Part shown: piece after piece, positions 5,975 to 44,369 of the stretch | Layout: the number at the start of each line of letters is the position of its first letter | How positions within the stretch are numbered: the stretch's first letter is position 1 | DNA from: Macrocystis pyrifera | Lineage: Eukaryota > Sar > Phaeophyceae > Laminariales > Laminariaceae | Assembly (NCBI GenBank): GCA_031763025.1 | Contig: JASSKH010000003.1 | Span: 4,392,718 to 4,456,717 of the forward strand | Direction: 5' to 3' | DNA: 64,000 nucleotides | Translations under genes and position numbers: made by a program | The notes under the pieces: generated by a model | Told to the model about the DNA's origin: nothing | The model's input: only the letters and a program-made list of their open reading frames with translations | Databases searched by the model: none

Positions 5975-6406
5975 GCATCCAGGCTTAGACTCTACGAACA
6001 CTCGCTTCTTTCGCACGCCTCTCGCACACGTACCGGGAAAGCGTGCGTCGCCCCTGCTCATCCTCCTTCCTTTGCATGATGCTGCAGCTCGCCAACCGCC
6101 GCTGTTGCTGTTGCCTGCTGCTGACGTGAAGAGGAACCGCAACAGAGAAACCACCACAGAAACCACGACAGTAGGCCTAGCCTCTAGGCCTATCAATCGG
6201 CAGCGAGCAGTGCCGTGCTCTACTCGTGCACCTATCACGAGAAGCTAGGAGGCGGCACGGGGCGAGTATGATCGTTCTTCTCTTCTCTCTGCCTCAAAAC
6301 AAATTAACCCATTTAGTTTCCGTCGGTAGAGCCCATGACTACAAATAATTAATTCCGTCGGTTGTGAACAAAACAGGCATCTCACGTGAACTTAGAGATG
6401 CTACGC
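5975..6406. repeat. orphan A-type terminal repeat of the large tyrosine-recombinase retroelement
   Basis: This block aligns with the right ends of the two large elements (31070-31418 and 43140-43499) and with 34480-34709. Shared landmarks include ctctcgcacac, cggcagcgagcagtgccgtg, gtttccgtcggtagagccca and aattccgtcggtt. It ends in a hairpin, gcatctc (6377-6383) pairing with gagatgc (6395-6401), five bases before the common boundary at acgc (6406). No B-type terminal sequence or coding region adjoins it here, so it is a stand-alone remnant. Confidence 0.75.
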
Positions 6407-21224: not shown

Positions 21225-21660
<436 letters not shown>

Positions 21661-22519: not shown

Positions 22520-22737
22520 TTTGTTGTATATATTTCGAATTCATATTATTATTCTCTCCGACGTCGGGGGGGAAGTCTCCTGGCGTGGTACGAGAGCCGC
22601 GGCACCGGTCGCTGACTCTCGTTGCCTTATCGTACTGCCAGTACCCGAGAGTTCCCCCCCCCCAGCCGACTGGCCGGGGCTCTAACAAACGCAGTCTCGG
22701 ACGACCGAGACCCCCCATGGTAGAAAACCATTGACAT
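22520..22737. repeat. B-type terminal repeat of copy 1
   Basis: Starts tttgttgtatatatttcg and is shared with 34112-34343 and 34710-34936. It contains a C/G-rich segment flanked by palindromes: ccgacgtcgg, a hairpin gtctcgg-acga-ccgagac, and near the inner end a tggta...accattg hairpin. It lies just downstream of the recombinase stop in coding sense. Confidence 0.85.
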
Positions 22738-22763
22738 ACCCCTATACCGTGGTCGCGTCAATA

Positions 22764-23906
22764 CTACGGTGTTCGGCCCCAAACAGTACCCTGACCTGGC
22801 TGCCTCTGCCCTATCTTACCCGTCTCTGCTAGTTTACGAGAAACGATACCCGCGTCCTCTCGGTTGTTGGGGGTGTACGTCTTGGAAGACTCTGGGGACT
22901 TCCATCTACCTTCTTTCTGAATCACCCTCTGCGGCACTTCGCCCCCCGCCGCTAGAGTAGTGGTTGCGCCGATACGCAATGAATGGAGGCCGCTGGGGTC
23001 GTCTCCTGCTTCCGCTACCACTTCGCGGAGTGCCCCGAGGGTCTCCGTGTACCCCCACACTCTGACCTCATTACCGTACCGATACGACGACAGGGGGGGG
23101 CTTTTTGGCAACGTCGGATATCCCGACAACAACTCCACCATGAGAGCGACGGCACCACCGCCTGCTCCTACCCCGGAACGCGCCCCGAAGGCGTCGTCGC
23201 GTGTGCGCACGATATCCGATCCTTGCTGAGCCTGGTCGCCTTTATGGCCTCGAAATAGAACCTCGATGCTGGTAGCCTGATGCCACTGCACCGAGTTCAA
23301 CCGCCGCCCCACCGCGAACAACGCTATGTCCCCCCTCGTCAAGCAACGCACGGGGTGTACTACTCCGGACGAGGAGGCGAACTTTTCGTCAGACCTCGCC
23401 ATGAAAAAATAGCCCAACGCTATCGACAGCCAAAGCACTCGGCCGCCCGGGCCCCACGACAGGGCCAGGCCCTGTCCTTCCAACAACGTGTCCCACGATA
23501 TAGGGCGCCGAATTCTTTTCGGGGTATCGGCGACGACGTGCGACGGTGCCACCCCTTTCAAAGCGCGTTTAACAAGCGGTGACGACGTGGGCAACTCCAT
23601 CTGCACATTCACGCGGTGAAAATGCAACACGGCTGATAGTTTACTGGCCATAGTACCGGCTTGGTTGCCCTCCGACGCGCACCACGCTACGAACTCAAGT
23701 GACATTTGAATCTTATCCGAATTGGAGGCTGACGTGTCGAAATACGGAGCCTCCCTGATCAACCCCCGAAAAGAGGTCCAGGACCAGAAACCTGACGTAT
23801 TACAAGCTCGGTGAGACGACGGCGCAACCGACTGGCGGATGAGCTGGCTGCCAGCACTCCTGAGCATAGCGCGACACCCGTTCGCCCCAAGAACTGTTGG
23901 CGCCAA
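22764..23906 (-). CDS. tyrosine recombinase of copy 1, uninterrupted
   Basis: A single 380-codon frame encodes a DIRS-type tyrosine recombinase. Catalytic positions can be read in order: R171 (FMARSDEKF), K222 (FRGHKGDQ), H308 and R311 in HSLRIGATT, W335 in the EGRW motif at the usual His/Trp position, and nucleophile Y344 in SKTYTPNN. The family integrates a circular cDNA by strand exchange, without target-site duplication. The ORF overlaps the end of the RT-RNase H frame (23759-24007) in another frame, so expression probably needs frameshifting, reinitiation or a separate transcript. I took the first Met of the open frame. A slightly different start is possible. It is the only long intact gene of the element. 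Confidence 0.85.
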   Translation of the reverse strand: MAPTVLGANGCRAMLRSAGSQLIRQSVAPSSHRACNTSGFWSWTSFRGLIREAPYFDTSASNSDKIQMSLEFVAWCASEGNQAGTMASKLSAVLHFHRVNVQMELPTSSPLVKRALKGVAPSHVVADTPKRIRRPISWDTLLEGQGLALSWGPGGRVLWLSIALGYFFMARSDEKFASSSGVVHPVRCLTRGDIALFAVGRRLNSVQWHQATSIEVLFRGHKGDQAQQGSDIVRTRDDAFGARSGVGAGGGAVALMVELLSGYPTLPKSPPLSSYRYGNEVRVWGYTETLGALREVVAEAGDDPSGLHSLRIGATTTLAAGGEVPQRVIQKEGRWKSPESSKTYTPNNREDAGIVSRKLAETGKIGQRQPGQGTVWGRTP

Positions 23907-25959
23907 GCCACATCGGGCCGGGACGCGCGGAGGTTACCGCCGATCACATCCGGCTTCCACCGTGATATAACGTCGGCAATGGTGTTCTCCACGCCCGCGA
24001 CATGCAACGCGTCGAAACACTATCCTACCTCCATGCACCCTAAAAGACGCATGAGTGCTCCCGATCGGAGTTCACTACCCCCCTACTTGGAGACCCAGTG
24101 CACATCGGACGTGTTGTCTCCCCGCATCAGGATGGTGTCCCACGCGTAACTAGGCCACACGTCCAACTGGTTAACGAATGTCCACGCTGCCACGACCATG
24201 CCCAGCAACTCGAGAACATTAATCGACAGATCGTTCCAACCACAAACCTTCTCGCGCAGGCGAGCGCGAACGTCGGCGTTAAATTCGACACGCCACCACA
24301 CGCCGGCCCTGGGAACGGACCCCAAAAAATAACCCCCCATGGCGTCGCCGGAAGCGTCTGACCACAGTGTAAACGCCGGCGGCTGCATGTAGCTTCGGCA
24401 CAGGGGGGCAGACAGGCGACCCGCCACGGAGCCTAGCCCTGCTTCTATCAACAGACGCCAGAAGGATACATCGGCGTGGAACATAGGACCCAATTGAATC
24501 CGTGAGGACGACGCCGCGGGCGCGTGCGGCGGCACGTGGAACTTCTCGCTCCACGCGCGAGCAGGGGCCAGGCCTACTTGGTTGAGCATGCGTCAAACAA
24601 AGTATTTTCCTGGTCGCACGACTTCGCACAGGTGCAGTAACCGACCGGTCAGAGAGCGGAGCCTCCCCTCGGACGCGAACGCGCGGTCCGAAGGCCACTC
24701 GCTCAGCGTGTCGCGGAGTTGCTCCGGCTTGGCTACGGGAACGGAAATAGTCATTGCCACGGTATCAATTTCCCACCCCAGCACGCACAACACGGTGTCC
24801 CACTGTGATATCTTTCGAGAAGACAGCAGAGGGGGGTCCCGTGAGGATCTCTCCCCGAAAAACCGAAAATGGTCCGACGCCAGAGATGCGGACGCGCGTC
24901 TACAGCGCCGACCGTCAGGCCACCATTAGACCTCCACTAGTATCCCGTCATCTACATAATCCCGCGCGAAAAATTGGCTACGCCTCCCCCCCCACTTCTC
25001 GACGGGAACCCGTCACCCAGGTGGAAAGGGGGTCGGCCGGTCGGTTGCCCTCGGCGGGGTGACCACGACGTTTTGGGTCGCGATACGCCCCTGATCCATT
25101 ACCACAGCATTCTCGTACGACGTGTGGCGATGCTCGTGTTCGAGGGCTGCCGAAAACATACAAAAGAACCCCGGTGAACTGAGCCATCTGAACTGGAGCC
25201 GGCAGTCGGTCACAATCCACTCCCGAAAGCCGTATCCAAATACGGGCGCCCCTGCCCGCTGCACGTTAATCCGACGGAACGCCTCAGTGGCATCGATTTT
25301 ACTCAAAACAATACGCGCGCTCGGTCCAAACCGCCGACGCAAGTACAAAATGCACCAAATAACGTCTCGCAACCCGTGGCCCAGCGCCACGGGGGGGGCT
25401 CGCTCGAAGTCAGTATCCGCGTTGACGCTGTGGGCGTACTGCGACGATGACAACGTCAGATCGTGGATGATCCGGGTTTTAGACGGGGATACAATCACGG
25501 CTAGCGGAGACAACCGCAAGCCGGGGATGGTGTCGTCTCGCTGCGCGGAAATATGACTGCCCGCCCAAACCGTACGTCGTCAAAAATCTTCGCGATTATA
25601 GTGTCAGAGTGTCGGGCTACACTGCTATGGTTTGAGTATGTCAAGGCCGCGCCAATGTCTGTGCTCCCCTCCACGTGGACGGGCGCGCCGTGTTCGACGA
25701 TATCCGCTAACTGCTCTACCCCAGGGAACCCTTTCTATCGTCCGAACCAAAAACGAATCCTAGCTGCTTTCACACGCGGGACGTTCAGGGATGTCTCGAT
25801 GGCACGCATACACCCCAAGCGGATACCACTCGCCCGAAAATACTGTAAATACTGCTGAGCTACGCGGTCCATAATCTCCGACCGGGACGCGCTAGTAGGC
25901 GATGCGACATGCTGCATATCGCGCAACAACACCACACAACGGTCCAACATACTCGTCAC
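23759..25959 (-). pseudogene. RT-RNase H of copy 1, several stops
   Basis: A segment MTSMLDRCVVLLRDMQ (25959-25735) opens the region. A one-base difference from copy 2 near 25525 shifts the frame. From 25519 down to 23759 one frame carries the rest: RT motif A SKIDATEAFRRI (Asp codon 25292-25294), RT catalytic YVDD at 24947-24958, RNase H TLWSDASGDAMGG (about 24355), SINVLELLGM (about 24220) and RGDNTSDVHW (about 24105). It ends with a GVENTIADVISRWK block. Stops interrupt at 25013, about 24911, 24593, 24083 and about 24019. At least two look like transitions (CGA to TGA and TGG to TAG) when compared with copy 2. Confidence 0.85.
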
Positions 25960-26030
25960 ACCTGGTCCCCCAACGGACGCCGAACCCGGACGTGCAAGCT
26001 GTGCATCTCGCGCTGCTGCTTCCGTACGCC

Positions 26031-28095
26031 CTACGATCGGTCTCGCCCCTGCTGAGGGGCGAGGCCCGTCCCCCTACTCGTCAGCCCTGGCCGCCGCCGA
26101 GCGAGTGACGGCCCCCCGGCCCCCCCGCTCGACGCCCCCCCCCTGCCCCTGCCGCTGCCGCTGCCGCTGCCGCTGCCGCTGCCGCTGCCGCTGCCGCCGC
26201 TGCCGCCGCTGCCAGAACCATGGCCGCTACCACTGCCGCTGCCGCTGCTATTGCCGCCGCTGTCGTCGCCGCTGCTCCCGGTACTCGCACCGCCGCCCCC
26301 CGCCCCCCCCCCCCTTCCCTTGCCCTTGGCCCTCTTGGCCGGGGGTTCCCCGGATGCAGCACCACTGGCTGCGACGCCGCTATCGGCAGAGTCCCCGCCG
26401 GTAGCCGCCTTGCGCTTGTTGCCGCTGCTCGTCTTGCGAGCGGGGCCGACGTGGGTGAGCACGCAGGCGTCACCAAAGCGGCACTTGCCGGTCTTCCCCC
26501 ACTGCCGGCATTCACCGGCCCCGACCCCGGCCACCGTGGCGGAGGTGCGGCGAGGTTGCTGGACTTCGGCGTTGATCAGGCCGCCGAAGGCGACGTATCC
26601 GGAAAGGCGGGGCCAATGGGGCCCCGGGATGGCCGGAAGGACTCCACCGGCGGGGGGTAGGCCAAAGCGTGGCCACAAGAGTGGGAGACGCGACGCAGGT
26701 CGAGCGCGAAGGTCTCGAGGTCCTTCGTCACCAGAGCCGCCAACCTGGTCCGGTTCGCCGGGCGGTCGGCGACCGCAAAGTGCTCCATCACGTGATCGTT
26801 GAGGATCGTCGCCCCCCCGCGCTGAAGGCTCGGGCGAGTGCCTCCAAGCGAGCCCGCGCCACCTGGAGATCCGCGCCGCCTTGTGGGAGTCTGCGGGACG
26901 CGATCGTGACGATCGCGTGCCCCAAAATGCTCAGGTGTTACGTTAGTGGGAGGGTGATGCCTGCTCTGCCGCGCGATGTGAAGGCCAGAAAGTTGAGGTC
27001 GTCCAGCACTTCCAACATACCATGGACGCCGGCCGAAATGTTGACCGAGGCCCCCACGTACCCCTGCACGGCCGCCCTCTGCATCGACGCCGGGCGGTCG
27101 CCGCATAGGATCTGCCATAGCCGAGTCGTGGGGTTGGCTCACGATGCCACCGCGCGGTTGGTCATGATTTTACTGACCTGTCTGCCCAGGGCGGCAAACG
27201 GGTTGCCGGCGCTGCCGTCCCCGTACATTTCCGAGCCGACCGCGAGCCCGCCCGGCTCGTCGTTGGCCACATGGCCGAGTGCAGCCGATGGCGCGCCGTT
27301 GGCTACTGTCCCGCCCGGGGCGAAGCCGAGGCCCCGGGCCGAGCCGGCGGCTAGCCCACCCGCTTGTCCGGAGAATGCGCCGGCGCCGCCGGTGCCGCCC
27401 GCATATGCCCCGTAGGCGAGCCCCCCCCCCCGGACCCACTACGAGCCCGCTCGCCTGGCCGAGGTGGACGCGGGCGGCTCCGGTACCGGCCAGAGCACCA
27501 TCGTAGGTCACCCTTCTGGCTGGGCCCGCGGTGGCCCCGGTACGGCCGGAGACGCTCCCGTAGCCCCGCCCTACCGGTCCTACGGCGAACTGGCCTGCCT
27601 GTCCGAGAGGAGCGCCGGCGGTTCCGGCGCGGCCCGGAGTATCGCCGTAGTCACCTGCTCGCCCCGAGCCTACGGCGAGTCTGCTCTGCGCGGGGTTGAA
27701 GGACCCGTGCAGATCCGCACGGGCGCCCGCGGCTCCATCGACGGGTTAGTCGGCGATGCTCGAGTCTGGGCGAGGACCCCGGCGACGGGGCTCCCGAAGA
27801 ACTGTCCGGTCGGCGGTTCGAGTAGGGCGGTGTTGGGGAAATGGTCCAGCGGGGTGGCCCCGGCAGCAGAGCTACCGAGCTGCGGTCCGGACCCGCTGGC
27901 GTCACCTCCCCTCCCCCCGTGGGTGGAGCGACAAGAGGCCTCGATGACCTCGTCCATCGATCGCTAGAGGGCCGCCTGGAGCTGGGCGACTTCGTTCGCC
28001 GTCTCAAGCTTGAAGGTAGCAAAGTCAGCGAGCGACACGGGAGCCTCCTCGTCGCCGTCGCTACCGGACGTTATCCCGATTCCTTTCTCCGCCAT
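26031..28095 (-). pseudogene. Gag of copy 1 with a CCCH zinc finger
   Basis: The first ATG at 28095 begins MAEKGIGITSGSDGDEEAP, an acidic N-terminus, followed by an amphipathic helix-like stretch ending VAQLQAAL. A TAG at 27964 replaces a Gln codon present in copy 2. A Gly/Ala/Pro-rich middle follows with further frame breaks near 27670 and 27170. The last open segment (26678-26031) holds a CX8CX5CX3H finger, ECRQWGKTGKCRFGDACVLTH, at 26451-26510, a basic KRAKGKGR patch and a long (Gly-Ser)n tail. Retroelement Gags usually use CX2CX4HX4C knuckles; CX8CX5CX3H is the fold of RNA-binding CCCH proteins. Assignment as Gag rests on position and composition. Confidence 0.65.
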
Positions 28096-28206
28096 TGTTC
28101 TCGCCAGGCCCCTGCGAAAACAAAAACAAATTGGACGCGACAGTACGGCGTGGACGCAAGACAGGGCACAGGTGCGGCGACAACGGACAACGCGGACGCG
28201 GAACGG

Positions 28207-28266
28207 ATGGGGGGGAACGGGGGGGGGGGGGAGGGAGGGAGGGGGGGGGAGGGGGCAGCGCGACGG
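28207..28266. repeat. G-rich (coding-sense C-rich) tract upstream of gag, copy 1
   Basis: Long G runs with scattered A lie about 110-160 bp before the gag ATG in coding sense. In copy 2 the equivalent is an uninterrupted run of 32 G. Confidence 0.8.
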
Positions 28267-30420
28267 GAACGAATTTAGATAGAGGCGACGGTGAGCACTA
28301 TCCATGCACCGGCCTGGACGAGGGTGTGGCTTACTTGTCCCCGTGCTCATGTGCGCTGGCACACCGTGCGTACGCGCCGGCGTTCGCCGCGGTTGTTGGC
28401 ATGCACCGGCATCTTCCTGTCAACGGGTTAGCTACTTGGTACTACGCATCGCGCATCTCGTCCCCCAGCCGAGAGCTTCCCTTGTGGGAACGACTTTAGA
28501 TAGAAGCGACGGTGAGTACTACCCATGCACCGGCCTGGGCGAGGGTGGGGCTTACTTGTGCCGTGCTGATGTGCACTGCCCCCCCGCGTTTCTACGCGCC
28601 GGCGTTGTTTATTGCCGCGGTTGTTGGCATGCACCGGCATCTTCCTATCAACAAGTTGGCTATCTGGTGCTATGCACCACGCATCTCGTGCCCCGGCCGA
28701 GAGCTTCCCGTGTGGTGACACGCTCCTGTGTCTTTGGTACGAATGTATCGATAGTGGGGGGAGGTTGGGGGGGGGGGTGAGGCATGCACCGATATATATT
28801 CCACTCGAACTCGACTTGTAAGCCGGTGCTCCGGTCCCGGCATGTGGACCGGCGCGTACTCCGCCACTATCGACCGCCTCCTGGTGCGCCGGCACAGCGG
28901 TATTGCTACATGCGTCGTTCCTTGTGTACTGCGGCGTTTCTGGTATTATCGCAAGTGAGGGACGGAACGAGAGCCGACGCGATGGCTCCGGCCGCGCCGG
29001 CACATAGTCCCTTCCGTCGCCCTTTTTAGTGCCCCGCCACAGCGTCGTTAGCACATACAGCAGTACATTGTGTCTCTCAGTGTGTATGGTATGTATCGGT
29101 GGTGAAGAGACGGGTCACCGGCCGACGCGTTGGCGCCGGCCACGAGACCTGCACCGGCACTTATTCCTTCACTACCGACCGCTTTTTTTAGCGCACCGGC
29201 ACAGCGTTGTTGATATGAACAGTGGAACATGGTATGTATCGGTGGTGAGGGACGGGTCACCAGCCGACGCGGTGGCGCCGGCCACGAGACCTGCACCGGC
29301 ACTTGTTCCGTCACCACCGACCGCTTCTTTTAGTGCACCGGCACAGCGTTGTTGGTACGAACAGTAGAACATAGTGTCTCACTACTAGTATGGTCTATTC
29401 ATAGTGAGTTCCTGCGCGTCGTGACGTCTACGATAACCATCGATAGCGCTTAAGTGCACCGGCACAGCGTTGTTGATATGAACAGTAGAACATACTAGTA
29501 TGGTCTATTCGTGGTGAGTTCCCGCGCATCTTGATGCGTGTGATAAGTATCGATAGAGGGGCAGGGCCGGGGATGACGCATCGGCGCCGGCCCCAAGCCG
29601 TGCGCCGGCACATGGCGCCTCGCCCTCGACCGCCTTCTAGTGCGACGGCACATCGGTGTTTTTATTTTGCGTGCATGGAGCGTACAGCAGTACCCTGTGT
29701 CTCGCGATATGTATTCTTAGTGACACCGGCCCCAAGTCCCTCGCCATCGACCGCCTTGTATTAATAGTGCACTGGCACATCGTTGTTGGTAGGTACGGCA
29801 ATATGATGTGTCTCCCGACGAGTATGGTATATATCGTTATGCATAGTATGATATATCGTTGTGCCTAGGGAGTTGTTGTGCGGCGCGACGCGTATGATTG
29901 ATATCGTTAGCGAGGGGCAGGCACCGGCCGGCGGTCAAGGGCAGACGCGTAGGCGCCGGCCTCCTCGATCGTTTTTAAGTGCGCCGGCACAGCGTCGTTG
30001 GAGCTTACAGCAGTGCTTACAGCAGTACACGTGTGTCGCAGCGTGTATGGTATGTATCGTTAGTGACACCGGCCACAAGTCCTTAGCCATCGACCCCGTA
30101 GTTGGGATATACAGCAGTACAAATGTGTCTCGCGATTTGTATGGTACGTATCTTTAGTGGCGCCGGCCACAAATCCTTGGCAATGGATCCCGTATATAGT
30201 TGGAGCGTACAGCAGTACAAATGTGTCTCGCGACGTGTATGGTACGTATCGTTAGTGCCACCGGCCCCCAAATCCCTAGCCATCAACCCCTTTTTGCTGC
30301 GCTGCCACATCATTGTGGTACGTACAACAGTCCGTTGTGTCTCGCGATGTGTATGGTGTGGGTCGATAGTGATGAACGGGGTCAGGGCCGAAGGCACTGG
30401 CCCGGCGTTGTTCGTCCCGT
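28267..30420. repeat. leader repeat array of copy 1
   Basis: Two units of about 221 bp start at 28267 and 28488 (gaacgaatttagatag... / gaacgactttagatag...). They are followed by roughly eleven degenerate units of 100-160 bp. Each of these carries a caccggcacagcgttgttg-like word, an acagcagtaca-like word, a gtgtctcgcgacgtgtatgg-like word and tatcgttagtg. The array is non-coding on both strands and is present unit for unit in copy 2, so it is a stable part of the element. Confidence 0.85.
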
Positions 30421-31069
30421 CAAAAAAGCATCAGACATACGTCGATATATACCAGTATATGCGAGAATGTATCGCGTTCCTGAGTACGGGATCTGCGAGA
30501 AAAGGCAAAGGAAAAACCTGGCAGCTACTCATATACCACATATACTCTCCGCTCCGGTGTCGTCGGTGTTCCCATATTAGTGCCGAGTACTCTAGGTCCG
30601 GGTATGTATTTCTTTTCCTAGGTATAGCCTTTTTTTTTTGGGATGTATCTGGTACGTGATAAGCGCTCTCTGCGCCGGTGATACGCTCGTCTCATTCACG
30701 CATACCTACTTCTTAGGCAGGAGTCCTGTCTATGCTGCTGCAGCTATCTTTAGTGTTCCCTCCTGTGAACGGCCGATTCGCGTATTCGCGGGTTTAGAAA
30801 GGACGTGAGTTGCCTTCTCCCCGTGCCAGCTATAATAACTTCATGCATGTACACGCTGCTTTTTCCCCATCCGCTGGGACGAACCGGCCAAGAGAAAAAA
30901 CCACGTGGGAAAGATCATGGCTGGCAGCCCCGAGCGAGTGAGTTAACGATGCTTGCTTGCGGAAGCATGAGACGGGCCTGTGTATCATTGTGTACCAGAG
31001 TCGACAGCTCCACGCGCCATTGTGATCGAGTTCAGGGTCTAGACCCACGAACGCCCGGGGCCCCCGGTA
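30421..31069. other. distal leader of copy 1
   Basis: Non-repetitive leader shared with 42431-43139 of copy 2. It includes a tatataccagtatatg near-palindrome at about 30453 and a T-run at about 30630-30640. No ORF with recognisable content. Confidence 0.6.
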
Positions 31070-31418
31070 GTTCGCGCGCCTCTCGCACACATACCGGGAA
31101 AGCGCTCGTTGCCCCTGCTCTTCCTCCTCCCGTTGCATGCTGTAGCCCGCCGACCGCCGCTGTTGCTGCTAGAAACCACAACAGTAGACCTAGCCTCTAG
31201 GCATATCAATCGGCAGCGAGCAGTGCCGTGCTCTGCTTGTGCACCTATCACGAGAAACTAGGCGGGGGCGCTGGACGAGAGTGGCCGTTCTTCTCTTCTC
31301 TCTGCCTCTGGGCGACTTCAGCTATTAGTTTCCGTCGGTAGAGCCCATGGCTATAGATAACTAATTCCGTCGGTTGTGAACAAAACATGCATCTCTCTTG
31401 AACTTAGAGATACTGCGC
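31070..31418. repeat. A1 terminal repeat of copy 1
   Basis: The 5' terminal repeat in coding sense. It matches 5975-6406, 34480-34709 and 43140-43499. The outer end carries a conserved hairpin-like atctct...agagat just inside the acgc-type boundary (31418). Confidence 0.85.
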
Positions 31419-31938: not shown

Positions 31939-32076
31939 AATACTCTTCCCGCCTCTGAACAGCGGGATCTTTGGGGCGTCGGTACCGTATACGGCCGTAC
32001 GCTGATCTATCCGCTTCGTTTCAATACCTGGGGAACCAGGGAGATATATGTCTACAGGGACTGCACGTGCAAGCAT

Positions 32077-32203
32077 TTCCTTAAAAGAATCGTTCGAAGT
32101 GAGATTCTAGCCCGGGTCCTCGGCGACGTCAAACGTGAAGGGTTTACCTACTGAGCTATGGGGGTGAATGATCGATCGATTACCCAGGCCAGGGTAATCC
32201 TTG
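32077..32203 (-). repeat. degenerate tRNA-like unit 2 (SINE-like)
   Basis: The minus strand reads acccccatagctcagtaggt followed by a T-arm-like ggacccgggctagaatctc. Upstream on the same strand both units share a hairpin-forming gattaccc...gggtaatc. The acceptor stem does not close. It is best read as a tRNA-derived retroposon fragment. Confidence 0.4.
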
Positions 32204-34111: not shown

Positions 34112-34343
34112 TTTGTTGTATATCCTTCGAATTGTCGTGTTATTATTATTATCTCCGACGTCGGGGGGGGGAGTCTCCTGGCGTGGTACGAGAGCCGCGG
34201 CACCGCCCGCTGACTCTCGTTGCCTTATCGTATTGCCAGTACCCGGAAGTCCCCCCCCCCCCCAGCCGACTGGCCGGGGCTCTAACAAACGCAGTCTCGG
34301 ACGACCGAGACCCCCAATGGTACAAAACCATTGGCATACCCCA
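34112..34343. repeat. B2 terminal repeat of copy 2
   Basis: Direct repeat of 34710-34936 and 22520-22737, starting tttgttgtatatccttcg and ending near attggcatacccc. It forms the 3' terminus of the element in coding sense. Confidence 0.85.
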
Positions 34344-34479
34344 CTCTTCTGGTGAGAGCCCCGAATCGCTACCAGTTAATAGCAGATAATAATACAAGTA
34401 TAATACGGTGTGGCCAGCACCCTGTGGCCGCTCCGTTCCACCCACCTTCGAAAGAAGAAAGGGGCGGGTGGGCGGGAGG
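34344..34479. other. spacer between B2 and A2
   Basis: 136 bp not matched in either terminal repeat. It may be diverged inner A2 sequence or an insertion. Confidence 0.5.
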
Positions 34480-34709
34480 AACCACAACAGTAGACCTCGG
34501 CAGCGAGCAGTGCCGTGCTCTGCTTGTTGACCTATCACAAGAAGTTAGGCGGGGGCGCGGGACGAGTGAGTGTGGCCGTTGTTCTCTTCTCTCTGCCTCT
34601 GGGCAACTTCAGCTATTAGTTTCCGTCGGTAGAGCCCATGACTATAAATAATTAATTCCGTCGGTTGTGAACAAAACATGCATCTCTCATGAACTTAGAG
34701 ATACTACGC
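34480..34709. repeat. A2 terminal repeat of copy 2
   Basis: Direct repeat of A1 (43255-43499), from aaccacaacagtagacct to agatactacgc. It lacks a short agcctctaggcatatcaat segment present in A1. It abuts B1 with no intervening base. Confidence 0.85.
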
Positions 34710-34936
34710 TTTGTTGTATATCTTTCGAATTGTCATATTATTATTCTCTCCGACGTCGGGGGGGGGGGGTCTCCTGGCGGGGTACGAGAGCCGCGGCACC
34801 AGCCGCTGACTCTCGTTGCCTTGTCGTACTGCCAGCACCCGGGAGTTAGCCCCCCCCCAGCCGACTGGCCGGGGCTCTAACTAACGCATTCTCGGAAGAC
34901 CGAGACCCCCAATGGTAGAAAACCATTGAGACACCC
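34710..34936. repeat. B1 terminal repeat of copy 2
   Basis: Starts tttgttgtatatctttcg directly after A2 and carries the same palindromic C/G-rich core as the other B repeats. The recombinase stop lies just inside it. Confidence 0.85.
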
Positions 34937-34958
34937 CCATACCGCGGTCGCGTCGATA

Positions 34959-36105
34959 CTACGGTGTTCGGCCCCAAACAGTACCCTGACCTGGCTGCCT
35001 CTGCCTTATCTTACCCGTCTCTGCTAGTTTACGAGAAACGATACCCGCGTCCTCTCGGTTATTGCGGGTGTATGTCTTGGAAGACTCTGGGGACTTCCAT
35101 CTACCTTCTCTCTGAATCACCCTCTGCGGCACTTCGCCCCCCGCCGCTAGAGTAGTGGTTGCGCCGATACGCAATGAATGGAGGCCGACTTCGCTGGGGT
35201 CGTCTCCTGCTTCCGCTACCACTTCGCGGAGTGCCCCGAGGGCCTCCGTGTACCCCCACACTCTGACCTCATTACCGTACCGATACGACGACAGGGGGGG
35301 CGCTTTCTGGCAACGTCGGATATCCTGACAATAATTTCAACCATGAGAGCGACGGCACCGCCGCCTGCTCCTACCCCGGAACGCGCCCCGAAGGCGTCGT
35401 CGCGTGTGCGCACGATAATCGATCCTTGCTGAGCCTGGTCGCCTTTGGCCTCGAAATAGAACCTCGATGCTGGTAGCTTGATGCCACTGCAACGAGCTCA
35501 ACCGCTGCCCCCCAGCGAACAACGTTATGTCCCCCCTCGTCAAGCAATGCACGGGGTGTACTACTCCGGACGAGGAGGCGAATATTTCGTCAGACCTCGC
35601 CATGAGAAAATAGCCCAACGCTATCGACAGCCAAAGCACTCGGTCGCCCGGGCCCCACGACAGGGCCAGGCCCTGTCCTTCCAACAACGTGTCCCACGAT
35701 ATAGGGCGCCGAATTCTTTTCGGGGTACCGGCGGCAACGTGCGACCGTGCCATTCCTTTTAAAAGTGCGTTTAACAAGCGGCGATGACGTCGGAAACTCC
35801 ATCTGCTCGTTCACGCGGTGAAAGTGCAACACGGCTGATAGTTTACTGGCTATAGTACCGGCTTGATTGCCCTCCGACGCGCACCACGCTACGAACTCAA
35901 GTGACATTTGAATCTTATCCGAATTGGAGGCTGGCGTGTCGAAACACGGAGCCTCCCTGATCAACCCCCGAAAAGCGGTCCAAGACCAGAAACCTGACGT
36001 ATAAGCTCGGTGAGACGACGGCACAACCCACTGGCGGATGAGCTGGCTGCCAGCACCCCTGAGCATAGCGCGACACCCGTTCGCCCCAAGACCTGTCGGC
36101 GCCAA
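34959..36105 (-). pseudogene. tyrosine recombinase of copy 2, frameshifted
   Basis: Clearly homologous along its length to the intact 380-residue protein of copy 1, but split over four partly overlapping frames (35590-36105, 35337-35777, 35216-35413, 34959-35261). The final frame keeps HSLRIGATT, the EGRW motif and nucleophile Tyr in SKTYTRNN. The indels fall mainly at short homopolymers such as the G-run near 35293-35300. Confidence 0.85.
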
Positions 36106-37764
36106 GCAACATTGGGCCGGGACGCGCGGAGGTTACCGCCGATCGCCTCCGGCTTCCATCGTGATATACCGTCGGCAATGGTGTTCTCCACGCCCGTGAC
36201 ATGCAACGCATCGAAACACTATCCACTGCCTACCTCCATGCACCCTAAAAGACGCATGAGTGCCCCCGATCGGGGTTCCCTACCCCCCTTACACTTGGAG
36301 ACCCAGTGCACAGCGGACGTGTTGTCTCCTCGCATCAGGATGGTGTCCCGCGCGTAACTAGGCCACACGTCCGACTGGTTAACGAATGTCCACGCTGTCG
36401 CGACCATGCCCAGCATCTCGAGGACATTAATCGACAGATCGTTCCAACCACAAACCTTCTCGGGCAGGCGAGCGCGGACGTCGGCGTTAAATTCGACACG
36501 CCACCACACGCCGGCCCCGGGAACGGGCCCCCCCCCCAAAAAACCCCATGGCGTCGCCGGAAGCGTCTGACCACAGTGTAAACGCCGGCGGCTGCATGCA
36601 GCTTCGGCACAGGGGGGCAGAGAGGCGACCCGCCACGGAGCCTAGCCCTGCTTCTACCGACAGACGCCAGAAGGATACATCGGCGTGGAACTCAGGACCC
36701 AATTGAATCCGCGAGGACGCCGCGCGCGCGTGCGGCACGTGAAACGTCTCGCTCCACGTGCGAACAGGGGCCAGGCCTACTTGGTAGAGCATGCATCGAA
36801 CAAAGTATTTTCCTGGTCGCACGACTTCGCACAGGTGCAGTAACCGACCGGTCAGAGAGCGGAGCTCTCCCTTGGACGCGAACGCGCGGTCCGAAGGCCA
36901 CTCGCTCAGCGTGTCGCGGAGTTGCTTCGGCTTGGCTACGGGAACGGAAATAGTCATTGCCACGGTATCAACTTCCCGCCCCAGCACGCACAACACGGTT
37001 TCCCACTGTGATATCTTTCGAGAAGACAGCAGAGGGGGGTCCTGTGAGGATCTCTCCCCGAAAAGCCGAAAATGGTCCGACGCCAGAGATGCGGACGCGC
37101 GCTCGGTCCAAACCGCTGACACAGGTACAAAATGCGCCAAATAACGTCTCGCAACACGTGGCCCAGCGCCACGGGGGGGGCTCGCTCGATTTCAGTATCC
37201 GCGTTGACGCTGTGGGCGTACTGCGACGATGACAACGTCAGATCGTAGATGATCCGAGTTTTATACGGGGATATAATCACGGCTAGCGGAGACAACCGCA
37301 AGCCGGGGATGGTGTGCGCCTCGCTGCGCGGAAATATGACTGCCTGCCCAAACCGTACGTCGTCAAAAATCTTCGCGATTATAGTGTCAGAGTGTCGGGC
37401 TACGCTGCTATGGTTTGAGTATGGCCGCGCCAATGTCTGTGCCCCCCTTCACGTGCGCCGTGTTCGACGATATCCGCTAACTGCTCTACCCCAGGGAACC
37501 CTTCCTTTCGTCCGAACCAAAAACGAATCCTAGCTGCTTTCACGCGCGGGACGTTCAGGGATGTCTCGAAGGCCCGCATACACCCCAAGCGGATACCACT
37601 CGCCCAAAATACTGTAAATACTGCTGAGCTACGCGGTCCATAATATCCGCTCGAGACGCGCTAGTAGGCGATCCGATTAGCTGCATATCGCGCAACAACA
37701 CCACACAACGGTCCAACATACTCGTCACACCTGGTCCCCCAACGGACGCCGAACCCGGACGCAC
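35961..37764 (-). pseudogene. RT-RNase H of copy 2 lacking the RT catalytic core
   Basis: The N-terminal region (MRPGSASVGGPGVTSMLDRC to RIRFWFGRKEGF) and the RT fingers (KTRIIYDLTLSSSQY) are readable. At 37095-37101 the sequence then jumps from FGPSAR to ASASLASDHF. Compared with copy 1, 421 bp are missing between two acgcgcg words, removing motif A and YVDD and shifting the frame. RNase H blocks (LWSDASGDAMG, SINVLEMLGM, RGDNTSAVHW, GVENTIADGISRWK) remain, with a frame shift after the C-run near 36530 and a TAG where Trp is expected near 36219. Confidence 0.85.
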
Positions 37765-37799
37765 AAGCTGCGCATCTCGCGCTGCTGCTTCCGTACGCC

Positions 37800-40218
37800 C
37801 TACGATCGACCTCGCCCCTGCTGAGGGGCGAGGCCCGTCCCCCTACTCGTCAGCCCTGGCCGCCGCCGCCGAGCGAGTGAAGGCCGCCCCGCTCGACGCC
37901 CCGCTGGTACTGCCACTACCGCTGCCGCTGCCGCTGCCGCTGCGGCCGCTGCCGGAACCACTGCCGCTACCACTGCCACTGCCGCTGATACTGCCGTCGC
38001 TGCCGCCGCCGCTACTCCCGGTACTCGCACCGCCGCCCCCCGCCCCCCCTTTTTTCCCTTGCCCTTGGCCCTCTTGGCCGGGGGTTCCCCGGATGCAGCG
38101 CCGCTGGCTGCGACGCCGCTATCAGCCCGCCTTGCGCTTGTTGCCGCTGCTCGTCTTGCGAGCGGGGCCGACGTGGGTGAACACGCAGGCCTCACCGAAG
38201 CGGCGCTTGCCAGTCTTCTCCCACTGCTGGCATTCGCCGGCCCCGACCCCGGCCGCCGTGGCGGAGGTGCGGCGAGGTTGCTGGGCTTCGGCGTTGATCA
38301 GGCCGACGAGGGCCACGTATCCGGAAAGGCGGGGCCAATGGGGCCCCGGGATGGCGGGGAAGGACTCCACCGGCGGGGGGTAGGCCCAAGCGTGCACGCA
38401 GGAGTCAGAGACACAACGCAGGTCGAGCGCGAAGGTCTCGAGGTCCTTCGTCACCAGAGCCGGCAGCCTGGCCCGGTTCGCCGGGCGATCGGCGACCGCA
38501 AAGTGCTCCATCATGTGATCATTGAGGATCGTCGCCCCCGCGCTGAAGGCTCGGGCCAGCGCCTCCAAGCGCGCGCGCGCCACCTCGAGATCCGTGCCGT
38601 CTTATGGGAGTCCCCGGGACGCGACCGTGACGATCGCGTGCCCCAAAATGCTCAGGTGTTACGCTAGTGGGAGGGTGATGCCTGCTCCGCCGCGCGGTGT
38701 GAAGGCCAGAAAATCGAGGTCATCCAGCGCTTCCAACATGCCACGGACGCCGGCCGAAATGTTGACCGAGCCCCCCACGTACCCCTGCACGGCTGCCCTC
38801 TGCATCGACGCCAGGCGATCGCCGCATAGGATCTGCCATAGCCGAGTCGTGGGGTTGGCTCACGATGCCACCGCGCGGTTGGTCATGATTTTTCATCCAG
38901 CGCTTCCAACATGCCACGGACGCCGGCCGAAATGTTGACCGAGCCCCCCACGTACCCCTGCACGGCTGCCCTCTGCATCGACGCCAGGCGATCGCCGCAA
39001 AGGATCTGCCATAGCCGAGTCGTGGGGTTGGCTCACGATGCCACCGCGCGGTTGGTCATGATTTTTCATCCAGCGCTTCCAACATGCCACGGACGCCGGC
39101 CGAAATGTTGACCGAGCCCCCCACGTACCCCTGCACGGCTGCCCTCTGCATCGACGCCAGGCGATCGCCGCATAGGATCTGCCATAGCCGAGTCGTGGGG
39201 TTGGCTCACGATGCCACCGCGCGGTTGGTCATGATTTTACTGACCTGTCTGCCCAGGGCGGCAAACGGGTTGCCGGCGCTGCCGTCCCCGTACATTTCCG
39301 AGCCGACCTCGGGCCCGCCCGGCTCGTCGTTGGCCACATGGCCGAGTGCAGCCGATGGCGCGTCGTTGGCTCCTGTCCCGCCCGGGGCGAAGTCGAGGTC
39401 CCGGGCCGAGCCGGCGGCTAGCCCGCCCGCTTGTCCGGAGAACGCGCCGGCGCCACCGGTGCCGCCCGCATATGCCCCGTAGCCGAGCCCCCCCCCCCGG
39501 ACCTACTACGAGCCACCCGCCTGGCCGAGGTGGGCGCGGGCGGCTCCGGTACCGGCCAGAGCACCATCGTAGGTCACCCTTCCGGCTGGGCCCGCGGTGG
39601 CCCCGGTACGGCCGGAGACGCTCCCGTAGCCCCGCCCTCCCGGTCCTAAGGCGAACTGGCCTGCCTGTCCGAGAGGAGCGCCGGCAGCTCCGGCGTCGCC
39701 CAGAGTACCGCCGAAGCCACCCGGGCCTGCCTGTCCGAGAGGAGCGCCCGCGGCTTCGGCTCCGCCCGGAGTACCGCCGTAGACACACTCCCGCCCCGGG
39801 CCTAGGCGAGCCTGCTCTGTGCGGGGTTGAGGGACCCACGCAGACCCGCGCGGGCGCCCGTGGCTCCATCGACGGGTCGGTCGGCGATGCTGGAATCTGG
39901 GCGAGGACCCCGGCGACAGGGCTCCCGACGAATTGCCCGGTCGGCGGTCCGAGTAGGGCGGTGCTGGGGAAGTGGTCCAGCGGGGCGGCCCCGGCAGCAG
40001 AGCTACCAAGCTGCGGTCCGGACCTGCTGGCGCCACCTCCCCTGCCCCCGTGGGCGGAGCGACGAGAGGCCTCGATGACCTCGTTCATCGATCGCTGGAG
40101 GGCCGCCTGAAGCTGGGCGACTTCGTTCGCCATCTCCTGCTTGAAGGTTGGCTAGCGACATGGGAGCCTCCTCGTCGCCGTCGCTACCGGACGTTATCCT
40201 GATTCCGTTCTCCGCCAT
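37800..40218 (-). pseudogene. Gag of copy 2, rearranged
   Basis: Starts MAENGIRITSGSDGDEEAP at 40218. A small deletion near 40145-40155 shifts the frame shortly afterwards, while the following coiled-coil-like segment keeps the Gln codon that is a stop in copy 1. The Gly/Ala-rich middle contains repeated GGTPGGAEAAGAPLGQAG-like units. A 173-bp segment is present three times (38719-39237). The zinc-finger region reads ECQQWEKTGKRRFGEACVFTH: the second Cys of CX8CX5CX3H is Arg (TGC to CGC), so the finger is broken. The Gly-Ser tail is shorter than in copy 1. Confidence 0.65.
38719..39237. repeat. 173-bp tandem triplication inside Gag of copy 2
   Basis: Three near-identical units start at about 38719, 38892 and 39065, each beginning tcatccagcgcttccaacat. 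Copy 1 has a single unit at about 26998-27170. Since 173 is not a multiple of three, the expansion destroys the reading frame. Confidence 0.9.
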
Positions 40219-40330
40219 CATTCTCGCCGGGCCCCTGCGAAAAAAAAACAAATTGGACGCGACAATACGGTGCGGACGCAAGACAGGGCACAGGTGCGGC
40301 GACAACGGACAAGGCGGACGCGGAACGGGG

Positions 40331-40331
<1 letters not shown>

Positions 40332-40363
<32 letters not shown>
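40332..40363. repeat. 32-bp poly(G) run, poly(C) in element sense
   Basis: An uninterrupted homopolymer 114-145 bp upstream of the gag ATG. The true length is uncertain because such runs sequence poorly. Confidence 0.85.
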
Positions 40364-40364
<1 letters not shown>

Positions 40365-40373
40365 ACGCGACGG

Positions 40374-42430
40374 GAACGAATTTAGATAGAGGCGACGGTG
40401 AGCACTATCCATGCACCGGCCTGGACGAGGGTAGGGCTTACTTGTCCCCGTGCTCATGTGCGCTGGCACACCGTGCGTACGCGCCGGCGTTGTTTATCGC
40501 CGCGGTTGTTGACATGCACCGGTAACTTCCTGTCAACGGGTTAGCTACTTGGTACTACGCATCGCGCATCTCGTCCCCCAGCCGAGAGCTTCCCTTGTGG
40601 GAACGAATTTTAGATAGAGGCGACGGTGATTACTACCCATGCACCGGCCTGGGCGAGGGTGGGGCTTACTTTTGCCCGTGCTGATGTGCATTGCCCCCCC
40701 CGTTTCTACGCGCCGGCGTTGTTTATAGCCGCGGTTGTTGACATGCACCGGCATCTTCCTATCAACGGGTTGGCTATCTGGTGCTATTCACCGCGCATCT
40801 CGTGCCCCGGCCGAGAGCTTCCCTTGTGGTGACAACCTCCTGTGTCTTTGGTACGAATGTATCGCTAGTGGGGGGAAGTGGGGGGGGGGGTGAGGCATGC
40901 ACCGGCATACATTCCACTCGAACTCGACTTGTGAGCCGGTGCTCCGGTCCCGGGATGTGGACCCGCGCGTACTCCGCCACTATCGACCGCCTTCCGGTGC
41001 GCCGGCACAGCGTATTGTTACGTGCGTCGTTCCTTGTGTACTGCGGCGTTTCTGGTATGTATCGCAAGTGAGGGACGGGCCGAGAGCCGACGCGTTGGCG
41101 CCGGCCGCGCCGGCACATAGTCCCTCCCGTCGCCCTTTTTAGTGCCCCGGCACAGCGTCGTTAGCACATACAGCAGTACATTGTGTCTCGCAACGTGTAC
41201 GGTATGTATCGGTGGTGAGGGACGGGTCACCGGCCGACGCGTTGGCGCCGGCCACGAGACCTGCACCGGCACTTGTTCCGTCACCACCGACCTCTTTATA
41301 GTGCACCGGCACAGCGTTGTTGATATGAACAGTGGAACATGGTATGTATCGGTGGTGAGGGACGGGTCACCGGCCGACGCGTTGGCGCCGGCCACGAGAC
41401 CTGCACCGGCACTTATTCCTTCACCACCGACCGCCTTTTAGTGCACTGGCACAGCGTTGTTGGTACGAACATTAGAACATAGTGTCTCACTACTAGTATG
41501 GTCTATTCATAGTGAGTTCTGCGCGTCCTGACGCGTACGATAAACATCGATAGCGCTTAAGTGCACCGGCACAGCGTTGTTGATATGAACAGTAGAACAT
41601 ACTAGTATGGTCTATTCGTGGTGACTTCCCGCGCATCGTGACGCGTGTGATAAATATCGATAGAGGGGCAGGGCCGGGGGACGACGTATCGGCGCCGGCC
41701 CCGAGCCGTGCGCCGGCACATGGCGCCTCGCCCTCGACCGCCTTCTAGTGCGACGGCACATCGGTGTTGTTGCGTGCATGGAGCGTACAGCAGTACCCTG
41801 TGTTTGCGATATGTATTCTTAGTGACACCGGCCCCAAGTCCCTCGCCATCGACCGCCTTGTATTAATAGTGCACTGGCACATCGTTGTTGGTAGGTACGG
41901 CAATACGATGTGTCTCCCGACGAGTATGGTATATATCGTTATGCATAGTATGATATATCGTTGTGCCTAGGGAGTTGTTGTGCGGCGCGACGCGTATGAT
42001 TAATATCGTTAGCGAGGGGCAGGCACCGGCCGGCGGTCAAGGGCAGACGCGTAGGCGCCGGCCTCCTCGATCGTTTTTAAGTGCGCCGGCACAGCGTCGT
42101 TGGAGCTTACAGCAGTGCTTACAGCAGTACACGTGTGTCGCAGCGTGTATGGTATGTATCGTTAGTGACACCGGCCACAAGTCCTTAGCCATCGACCCCG
42201 TAGTTGGGATATACAGCAGTACAAATGTGTCTCGCGATTTGTATGGTACGTATCGTTAGTGGCACGGACCACAATTCCTTGGCAATCGATCCCGTATATA
42301 GTTGGAGCGTACAGCAGTACAAATGTGTCTCGCGACGTGTATGGTACGTATCGTTAGTGCCACCGGCCCCCAAATCCCTAGCCATCAACCTGTTTCGCTG
42401 TGCTGGCACAGCAATATGGTACGTACAACA
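40374..42430. repeat. leader repeat array of copy 2
   Basis: Same array as 28267-30420: two units of about 227 bp (40374, 40601), then about eleven 100-160-bp units with the same words in the same order. Differences from copy 1 are scattered substitutions and small indels; the last units differ most. Confidence 0.85.
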
Positions 42431-43139
42431 ATAGGGTCAGGGCCGAAGGCACTGGCCCGGCGTTCTTCGTCCCCATAAAACTAGACAGCCGTCAGCTGTG
42501 AGATCGAGAGTATCAGGCATACGTCTATATATACCAGTATATGCGAGAATGTATCGCGTCCTGGGTACGGGATCTGTGAGACAAGGCAAAGGAAAACCTG
42601 GCATGTACGCGTACACCACACATGCCCTCCGCTCCGGCGTCATCGGTGTTCCCATATTAATGCCGGGTACTCTAGGTCCGGGTATGCATCTCTTTTCCTA
42701 GGTATAGCCTTTTTTTTTTTGGATGTATATGGTACGTGATAAGTGCTCTCTGCGCCGGTGGTACGCTCGTCTCAGTCACGTATACCTACTTCTTAGGCAG
42801 GAGTCCTGTCTATGCTGCTGCAGCTATCTTCAGTGTTCCCTCTTGTGAACGGCCGATTCACGAATTAGCGGGTTTCGAAAGGACATGAGTTTCTTTCTAC
42901 CCGTGCCAGCTATAATAACTTCATGCATGTACAAGCTGCTTTTTCCCCATCGGCTGGGGCGAACCGGCCAAGAAAAAAAAAACACGTGGGAAAAATCCTG
43001 GCTGGCAGCCCCGAGCGAGTGAGTTAACGATGCTTGCTTGCGGAAGCATGAGACGGGCCTGTGTATCATTGTGTACCTGAGTCGACATCTCCACGCCCCA
43101 TTGTGATCGAGTTCAGGGTCTAGACCCACGAACGCCCGG
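42431..43139. other. distal leader of copy 2
   Basis: Matches 30421-31069, with an extra agacagccgtcagctgtgag-like segment near 42483-42503. No gene. Confidence 0.6.
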
Positions 43140-43499
43140 GGCCCCCGGTAGTTCGCGCGCCTCTCGCACACATACCGGGAAAGCGCTCGTTGCTCCTGCT
43201 CTTCCTCCTCCCGTTGCATACTGTAGCCCGCCGACCGCCGCTGTTGCTGCTAGAAACCACAACAGTAGACCTAGCCTCTAGGCATATCAATCGGCAGCGA
43301 GCAGTGCCGTGCTCTGCTTGTGCACCTATCACGAGAAACTAGGCGGGGGCGCTGGACGAGAGTGGCCGTTCTTCTCTTCTCTTTGCCTCTGGGCAACTTC
43401 AGCTGTTAGTTTCCGTCGGTAGAGCCCATGGCTGTAGATAACTAATTCCGTCGGTTGCGAACAACACATGCATCTCTCGTGAACTTAGAGATACAACGC
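43140..43499. repeat. A1 terminal repeat of copy 2
   Basis: Matches A1 of copy 1 and A2 of this copy. The outer end atctct...agagatacaacgc carries the conserved hairpin-like motif. Confidence 0.85.
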
Positions 43500-43783
43500 A
43501 TACTATAGTATGTACCAAGGTACCCTGTAAAAAGCAACACCGTTGTACCAGCTTCAAGACGTGTTTTACCAATAGTGCATACTACCAGATAAAGAAATAA
43601 CGTTGTCGTCACTACGCATCAACGCGTTTTTTTTTTGTCGTTCATTGACCTTGTAATCGATTCCTGAGCATGGGTGACTTGAACGGCGAAGACGTTGAAG
43701 TATTTATCGATATAATCTCACAATATGATCACTGGTAGCTTCAACTTGAGCGCTCACCCATGAACATCCCCAGAAAGAAGGTA
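43500..43783. other. unassigned DNA between copy 2 and the hAT-like element
   Basis: AT-rich sequence with no recognised feature. Confidence 0.4.
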
Positions 43784-43809
43784 CTTACAATCAAGGCTTA
43801 TCACAGTGA

Positions 43810-44252
43810 CTGAGAGTCGTGACGGGACGGGACGGGACAGATTTGACTCGTTTGGCGGGGGAAAACAAAATGACAACAAACGGGACGGGACGGTAAAATG
43901 AGGACATAAAACGTTGGCGGGACGGGACGGCACGGGACAGCGGATGCCAAATTTCTTGACGAGACGGGACGGTAAAATTCAACGGGGCTGATTTTCACGA
44001 CGGGACGGGACGGTAAATATTTTTCCTCTCGGCGGGACGGGACGGTAAATATTTTTTCCTCGGCGGGACGGGACGGTAAATATTTTTCCTCGGCGGGACG
44101 GGACGGTAAATATTTTTTCCTCGGCGGGACGGGACGGTAAATATTTTTTCCTCCGCGAGACGGGACGGTAAATATTTTTTGCCACAGCGGGACGAGACGG
44201 TAATTTGTTTTTCTTCAGCGGGGCGGGACGGTAATTATAGTTTCTTCTTTCC
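43810..44252. repeat. left subterminal repeat array of the hAT-like element
   Basis: A unit of about 35-38 bp, core gcgggacgggacggtaaata followed by a T-rich spacer, repeats about eight times between 43985 and 44250. Looser copies precede it from 43810. Confidence 0.9.
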
Positions 44253-44369
44253 CGCCGCAAGGTCGGCGCGGTTGTACGCGAAAAAGTTCCCGCCCACCGC
44301 TGGTTCCGAGGGAGCTATCCCGACGCAGACGTTTTCTTCTCGACCCGCGCAGCCCAATGTGATGCGGAG

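What the first reader, a model, noticed from the sequence alone, without database searches (positions are those of the whole stretch)
34112..43499. Complete split-direct-repeat architecture in a DIRS-order retroelement
Copy 2 shows A1 - Gag - RT/RH - YR - B1 - A2 - B2. A2 and B1 meet without a spacer at 34709/34710, the junction expected if linear termini were joined in a circular intermediate. PAT and Ngaro elements use this plan; DIRS1 itself uses inverted repeats. Finding both terminal types in one window (A alone, B alone, B1-A2-B2) lets the boundaries be set from sequence alone: tttgttgtat for the 3' end and acgc for the 5' end.
Basis: partly seen in the sequence, partly recalled or inferred. 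Interest (0 to 1): 0.75.

Follow-up and report, generated by a model that had tools for sequence, protein, structure and literature searches.

The report
Ngaro-type retroelement with split direct repeats
The window holds an old, decayed copy of a common jumping gene of the Ngaro type, whose oddly split end repeats are real and shared by other copies in the genome; broken copies carry joints that hint at how such elements copy their ends.

Summary
In 36 genomic loci found with B, all 25 B-A contacts are gapless; 22 loci are canonical on that side, 7 have B but no A2/B2, 4 are solo A-spacer-B. Ends coincide, no target-site duplication is seen, and the 3 bp before the 5' end are WAW in 30 of 35 (middle A in 35 of 35): as expected if a tyrosine recombinase inserts a circle with a 3-bp core. 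Frames lack room for a methyltransferase: Ngaro-like, not PAT. Copy 2 is old and segmentally duplicated 492 kb away.

Less ordinary: 10 copies have A1 joined to a displaced internal point, three to an inverted (snap-back) piece; in 9 of 10 the A side breaks at A 240-247 of 247, the inner edge of A. Behind A2 a polypyrimidine tract begins there. I read these as reverse-transcription strand jumps onto an end at the A2/spacer edge, perhaps where minus-strand synthesis starts. The clustering is shown; the priming site is inference.

The parts
43253..43499 (-). A1, left (5') terminal repeat of copy 2; outer end GCG (element sense) at 43499
37800..39876 (-). Gag region of copy 2 (broken; 173-bp segment three times at 38720-39238)
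   Evidence: CCCH zinc finger PF00642 E 9.1e-5 in another copy, L027
36199..37362 (-). RT/RNase H region of copy 2 (broken, about 0.4 kb deleted)
   Evidence: RNase H motifs
35132..36132 (-). tyrosine recombinase region of copy 2 (broken)
   Evidence: 93.7% identical to the copy 1 YR frame, which gives Pfam PF00589 E 0.0051, below the curated cut-off
34710..34937 (-). B1, internal copy of the right repeat
34709..34710 (.). gapless B1/A2 junction (circle-type junction)
   Evidence: same in 25 of 25 B-A contacts
34478..34709 (-). A2, internal copy of the left repeat (18-nt deletion)
34450..34477 (-). polypyrimidine tract directly behind A2 in element sense (25 of 28 C/T)
34344..34477 (-). spacer (SP) between A2 and B2
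   Evidence: 425 first-look candidates genome-wide, 40 scored
34112..34343 (-). B2, right (3') terminal repeat; outer end ACAACAAA (element sense) at 34112
22520..31418 (-). copy 1: A-coding-B without A2, spacer and B2
6010..6406 (-). A repeat with a stub of the leader (truncated copy)

Best explanation
A Ngaro-like (DIRS order) retrotransposon family. SHOWN in the copies read: architecture A1-Gag-RT/RH-YR-B1|A2-spacer-B2; fixed outer ends; no target-site duplication; a WAW triplet beside the 5' end; B1 and B2 of one copy more alike than between copies; copy 2 with strongly diverged repeats and a segmental duplicate; displaced A1 joints that gather at the inner edge of A, some with inverted internal pieces. 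INFERRED: the RNA lacks parts of its outer ends; minus-strand DNA is started just behind A2 (at the polypyrimidine tract) and runs to the 5' end of the RNA; the B2 end of the RNA anneals to B1 on that strand and is extended across B1|A2 up to the strand's 5' end, giving an acceptor whose 3' end is the inner edge of A; the finished minus strand transfers to it, copies A, B2 and spacer, and closes a circle with a B2|A1 junction; the tyrosine recombinase inserts the circle at a WAW core. When the minus strand stops early (or folds back on itself) its end jumps to the same acceptor end, giving A1 fused to a varying internal point.
For: Repeats. Copies: (40 scored of 912 candidates, 36 loci): 25 of 25 B-A contacts gapless (24 without the duplicate L013). 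B1/B2 more alike within a copy than between copies: mean 98.5 vs 97.9%, 11 of 20 pairs without a substitution, permutation p at the floor of 20,000 shuffles (5e-5); A1/A2, 10 loci, 98.1 vs 97.5%, p 0.0016. Target: -2 is A in 35 of 35, WAW in 30 of 35, 2.9 expected; overlap of left and right flanks 0.71 nt vs 0.79 for unpaired flanks, 17 loci. Motifs YVDD, SDAS, HVAGVENTIAD, ARSDEI, HSLR, SKTY in most of seven copies scanned; Pfam PF00589 E 0.00088. Jumps: of 83 A inner ends, 41 meet the spacer, 20 the leader, 10 a displaced internal point, 12 other; A-side breaks 247, 247, 240, 245, 165, 247, 247, 247, 245, 247; binomial p 5e-26 for 9 of 10 in a 10-nt stretch, 1e-17 for 8 of 14 after correction for choosing the stretch. 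Inverted pieces in L045, L086, L087. Slip duplications at the same edge in L028 and L069. The polypyrimidine tract begins at that edge.
Against: Priming site and order of steps are not observed; no RNA or cDNA data. One jump of ten (L020) breaks at A165. L086 and L087 share nearly the same joint (inverted INT 3827) and may be one event. Deletions with the left break inside the internal part also exist (INT 4882-6919, 6594-6952, 5530-5943, L050, L056, L075). The copies read are the best-scoring ones, not a random sample. The first bases behind A2 do not look like a tRNA primer site (TGG; PMC5006619). PF00589 and RVT_1 (E 0.061) are below Pfam's curated cut-offs. In the A1/A2 test one of ten pairs (L019) is not a true A1/A2 pair, and the own pair is not the closest in 6 of 10. 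RT tree not made.
Confidence: 0.7

Rival explanations
1. The displaced A1 joints are ordinary deletions after insertion (microhomology end joining), and the copying mechanism leaves no trace in them.
For: Microhomology of 0-4 nt at the joints read; other internal deletions exist.
Against: 9 of 10 A-side breaks lie in A 240-247; three carry inverted pieces with a turn point, as when a DNA strand copies itself; slip duplications at the same edge.
Confidence: 0.1
2. The acceptor end at the inner edge of A is an RNA 3' end (transcript cleaved or ended at A2/spacer), not the run-off end of a strand set by the minus-strand primer.
For: Explains the edge equally well; a hairpin is predicted behind A2, but the fold is not significant (z -1.6).
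Against: No added A-run at the ten joints; spacer and B2 follow A2 in 22 of 36 B loci, so they must be copied in most copies.
Confidence: 0.25
3. The split-repeat plan of copy 2 is a chance tandem: an A-coding-B circle inserted by the recombinase at the A end of an older solo A-spacer-B.
For: A-coding-B type right ends (7 of 36) and solo A-spacer-B (4 of 36) exist, and a tandem of two A-spacer-B units (L040). In copy 2 B1 and B2 are the least alike pair (rank 20 of 20).
Against: Over all pairs B1 and B2 match within the copy beyond chance; copy 2 also fits an old insertion whose two repeats drifted apart.
Confidence: 0.1
4. The solo A-spacer-B and A-coding-B forms come from recombinase acting on the two B|A junctions of one circle, rather than from homologous recombination between A1/A2 or B1/B2 in the chromosome (a question beside the main one).
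For: Both forms have the same ends and mostly the same WAW target core (two solos, L015 and L017, have AAC).
Against: Homologous recombination gives the same ends; not told apart here. PMC8547959 suggests recombination of 5' and 3' repeats for isolated AB units.
Confidence: 0.35

Closest known systems
Ngaro retrotransposons (Cafeteria burkhardae; Ectocarpus DIRS/Ngaro families)
   Same: A1-[ORFs]-B1A2B2 plan, Gag-like, RT/RH and YR, isolated AB repeats (PMC8547959, passages seen); 15 Ngaro families in Ectocarpus, 2.45% of the genome (PMC12477816, passages seen)
   Different: About 9 kb here against about 6 kb in Cafeteria, with a long repetitive leader; CCCH zinc finger in Gag; displaced A1 joints not mentioned in the passages seen
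VIPER / SIRE of trypanosomatids
   Same: A1...B1 A2 B2, and a short form that spans A2 and B2 with its own internal piece (PMC6681497); no target-site duplication (PMC12278014); passages seen
   Different: Other hosts; sequence relation not tested
PAT-like (Pat1, Toc3, Kangaroo)
   Same: Split direct repeats (PMC4157794, passages seen)
   Different: PAT elements are described with a methyltransferase domain; none found here
DIRS1-like
   Same: Tyrosine recombinase, circle, 3-bp junction, no target-site duplication (PMC3266345, PMC5633606, passages seen)
   Different: Inverted terminal repeats; none here
Skipper LTR elements of dictyostelids
   Same: Polypyrimidine tract in place of a tRNA primer site downstream of the left LTR (PMC5006619, section 7 and passages seen)
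   Different: LTR element with integrase; only the position of the tract is alike

Membership tests
Ngaro-like | split direct repeats A1-ORFs-B1-A2-B2 | tested here: met
Ngaro-like | reverse transcriptase and RNase H | tested here: met
   motifs YVDD, SDAS, HVAGVENTIAD (that these mark RT/RH is recalled); Pfam RVT_1 only E 0.061
Ngaro-like | tyrosine recombinase, same direction as RT | tested here: met
   PF00589 E 0.00088, below curated cut-off; R, HxxR, Y motifs
Ngaro-like | no methyltransferase domain | tested here: met
   RT/RH frame of L027 ends about 80 codons after the RNase H motif begins and overlaps the YR frame; no such Pfam hit
Ngaro-like | insertion without target-site duplication | tested here: met
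   17 loci with both ends
Ngaro-like | place in an RT tree | not tested
   no reference set at hand; scans of viral contigs found no relative
PAT-like | methyltransferase domain | tested here: not met
DIRS1-like | inverted terminal repeats and internal complementary region | tested here: not met
   0 inverted pairs of 60 nt or more in 30000-46000

The most novel reading that the evidence does not exclude
Ngaro elements prime their minus strand like an LTR element, at a polypyrimidine tract directly behind the internal repeat A2, and B1|A2 exists to give the finished strand an acceptor; the A-edge joints are genomic footprints of that strand transfer and can be counted in any genome with such elements.
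Probability: 0.35. Interest if true: 0.7.

Novelty: new member of a known kind. Interest (0 to 1): 0.45.

Why it matters
How tyrosine-recombinase retrotransposons start reverse transcription and rebuild their ends rests on proposed models (passages in PMC6681497 and PMC5633606; the latter says not fully proven for DIRS-1). Some 900-1000 candidate copies of one family in one genome, with joints that gather at one place, make the question countable. The element itself is ordinary.

Tried and rejected
Splicing of the RNA as the source of the displaced joints: rejected, the A edge is followed by TA or TC and not GT, the internal sides lack a common AG, and inverted pieces cannot come from splicing. 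L019 as a snap-back by reverse transcription: set aside, its two flanks look like inverted copies of one another, so a chromosomal rearrangement is as likely. L011, L019, L022: internal sequence begins without A; not counted as jumps. L050: internal deletion, not a jump. Plasmids, solved structures (one unrelated weak hit), viral contigs, Rfam and tRNA in the window: nothing. The published Ngaro models could not be read: Poulter and Butler 2015 is not held, and I did not ask for Goodwin and Poulter 2004 by id. Parts of my inferred cycle may already be in them. Paper searches on truncation, template switching and priming: nothing in the titles and abstract starts listed points to such joints; the library is open-access only.
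Full report
WHAT WAS CLAIMED.

CHECK IN THE WINDOW. Both repeat pairs are real and far beyond chance: 34112-34333 against 34710-34928 at 89.7% (E 2e-75) and 34497-34709 against 43291-43499 at 90.1% (E 1e-73). No inverted repeat pair of 60 nt or more was reported in 30000-46000. The order is right if read on the minus strand. A second copy, 22520-31418, has A-coding-B and nothing more; 6010-6406 is an A with a stub of leader. In copy 2 the longest minus-strand frames are 304 and 234 aa.

WHAT THE ELEMENT CODES FOR. Other genomic copies hold longer frames: Gag, RT/RH and a 390-codon YR frame that overlaps RT/RH by about 170 nt. Pfam finds Phage_integrase (E 0.00088, below its curated cut-off), a CCCH zinc finger in Gag (PF00642, E 9.1e-5, above its cut-off) and only a weak RVT_1 (0.061). 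Motifs YVDD (RT), SDAS and HVAGVENTIAD (RNase H), ARSDEI, HSLR and SKTY (YR) occur in order in most of the seven copies scanned; copy 2 lacks the YVDD match and copy 1 the ARSDEI match. That these mark the families is recalled. In L027 the RT/RH frame ends about 80 codons behind the start of the RNase H motif and already overlaps YR, so there is no room for the methyltransferase of DIRS1/PAT elements. That places it with Ngaro.

GENOME COPIES. The window lies in a 537-Mb, 223-contig assembly. B as query gave 912 first-look candidates, 40 scored, in 36 loci; all 36 were read at least around B (window). These are the best-scoring copies, not a random sample. Twenty-two are canonical on the right side (B1|A2-spacer-B2); 7 have B followed by sequence without A, spacer or B (L020, L021, L025, L026, L035, L039, L043); 4 are solo A-spacer-B (L015, L017, L031, L036); one is a tandem of two such units (L040); L028 has B1|A2 and then host-like DNA; L019 is rearranged. 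Wherever B meets A the gap is zero: 25 of 25, the duplicate L013 included (in L027 the last two bases of B are substituted).

DUPLICATION. The region of copy 2 (32610-43389 as far as fetched) recurs at 99.4-99.8% identity on the same contig 492 kb away, flank included, and the A of copy 1 has a partner there too: a segmental duplication after insertion. L013 is therefore not an independent copy.

AGE AND UNITY. B1 and B2 of one copy are more alike than between copies (20 loci incl. L013; mean 98.5 vs 97.9%; 11 pairs without a substitution; permutation p at the floor of 5e-5, also for the 17 loci without the three old ones); A1 and A2 likewise (10 loci, 98.1 vs 97.5%, p 0.0016; 8 loci, p 0.015; one of these pairs, L019, is not a true A1/A2 pair, and in 6 of 10 another copy's A2 was closer than the own one). 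The pairs L041 and L042 were fetched later and are not in the test. PMC6681497 (passage seen) says that the proposed model implies repeats nearly identical at insertion. In copy 2 the B pair is the least alike (90.75%, rank 20 of 20), as expected of an old insertion.

TARGET. Of 36 left ends, 35 after dropping L063, whose flank matches L058 (L013 gave none), position -2 is A in 35, -1 is A/T in 32, -3 is A/T in 32; WAW in 30 against 2.9 expected. Two more ends read later (L086, L087) also fit. The right end is AAA in all 30 ends listed. Left and right flanks share no more than unpaired flanks (0.71 vs 0.79 nt, 17 loci). This is what recombination of a circle junction ...ACAAC-AAA-GCG... with a target W-A-W would give, the target triplet kept on the left and the circle triplet on the right; PMC3266345 describes a 3-bp junction and no target duplication for DIRS1-like elements (passages seen).

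THE A-EDGE JOINTS. A as query gave 988 and 1026 candidates (40 scored each); 27 of the 42 places (the other 15 were already held or duplicates) and 7 new places were read with short stretches; three more places meet the leader by their coordinates and were not read. Of 83 A inner ends classified (L013 and both L058 and L063 among them), 41 run into the spacer, 20 into the leader, 10 into a displaced internal point, 12 into other things (A2 with end deletions, host-like DNA, slips, L019, a stub, another repeat). The ten: L009 (A247/INT 5871), L012 (247/7153), L016 (240/3615), L018 (245/7601), L020 (165/7528), L024 (247/about 6430), L067 (247/2955, the left end of L035), L045 (247/inverted 4150-3619, then forward), L086 (245/inverted 3827-3676, then forward), L087 (247/inverted 3827-3659, then forward). 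L086 and L087 may descend from one event. Nine of ten break in A 240-247. For breaks spread evenly over A and the internal part the chance is 5e-26 (9 of 10 in 10 nt), 2e-23 if five internal deletions are added, and 1e-17 for 8 of 14 after correction for choosing the stretch. L028 and L069 carry 15- and 13-nt slip duplications of the last bases of A at the same edge. The inverted pieces are what a DNA strand gives when its 3' end folds back and copies itself; in L045 the turn lies at or near a GGCCATGTGGCC hairpin, and the displaced point of L016 lies within about 20 nt of it.

READING. Something with a 3' end at the inner edge of A accepts minus-strand ends, whatever their sequence. The edge is where A2 meets the spacer, and there a tract TCCCGCCCACCCGCCCCTTTCTTCTTTC (25 of 28 pyrimidines) begins; only one other place in the unit, around INT 2589, reaches that count (30 of 9182 windows in two clusters). 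Most Skipper elements of dictyostelids have a polypyrimidine tract in place of the tRNA primer site behind the left LTR, which its authors take to suggest non-canonical priming (PMC5006619, section 7 read). I infer that minus-strand synthesis starts at this tract, that B2 of the RNA is extended on B1|A2 to the start of that strand, and that this extension is the acceptor. This gives the B1|A2 pair a reason to exist and yields a circle with B2|A1. The alternative, an RNA end at the same place, is not excluded.

KNOWN OR NEW. The plan, isolated AB units and lack of duplication are known for Ngaro and VIPER (PMC8547959, PMC6681497, PMC12278014; passages seen), and Ngaro families were reported from Ectocarpus (PMC12477816; passages seen). 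The element is a new member of a known kind. I saw no report of A-edge joints in the listings of searches; a key model paper was not held, so I cannot say that the idea is new.

Noticed in passing
window 22520-43501; G000:C211 4.916-4.929 Mb: Segmental duplication (99.4-99.8% over the part fetched) 492 kb away on the same contig, holding copy 2 with its flank, and a partner of the A of copy 1; the 173-bp Gag repeat has 3 units in the window, apparently 2 in the duplicate.
   Followed up: partly
L028, L045-L048, L050, L051: A lineage with a shared internal deletion (about INT 4882-6919, most of RT/RH lost): a likely non-autonomous subfamily; another with INT 6594-6952 missing (L044, L049).
   Followed up: partly
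L040:236-1470 (element sense): Two A-spacer-B units in tandem with a gapless B|A contact.
   Followed up: no
L069: A with only about 10 nt of leader; part of its left flank recurs behind it, reading CCTAAAAAGCG like a would-be empty site.
   Followed up: no
L059; L028 right end: A247 plus TC joined directly to DNA without match to the element.
   Followed up: no
upstream of Gag in fetched copies: Long C- and T-rich tract ending in CAG just before the Gag start, like a 3' splice site (seen in the print); the leader holds 140-bp tandem repeats.
   Followed up: no
Gag frame, L027:4404-6653: CCCH-type zinc finger (PF00642) in Gag.
   Followed up: no
window 43992-44249: 31-bp satellite-like array next to copy 2; about 500-bp repeats at 8529-9028, 44358-44858, 63505-63983.
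   Followed up: no
window 21230-21684: Minisatellite array inside a 231-codon open frame (20965-21660, + strand).
   Followed up: no
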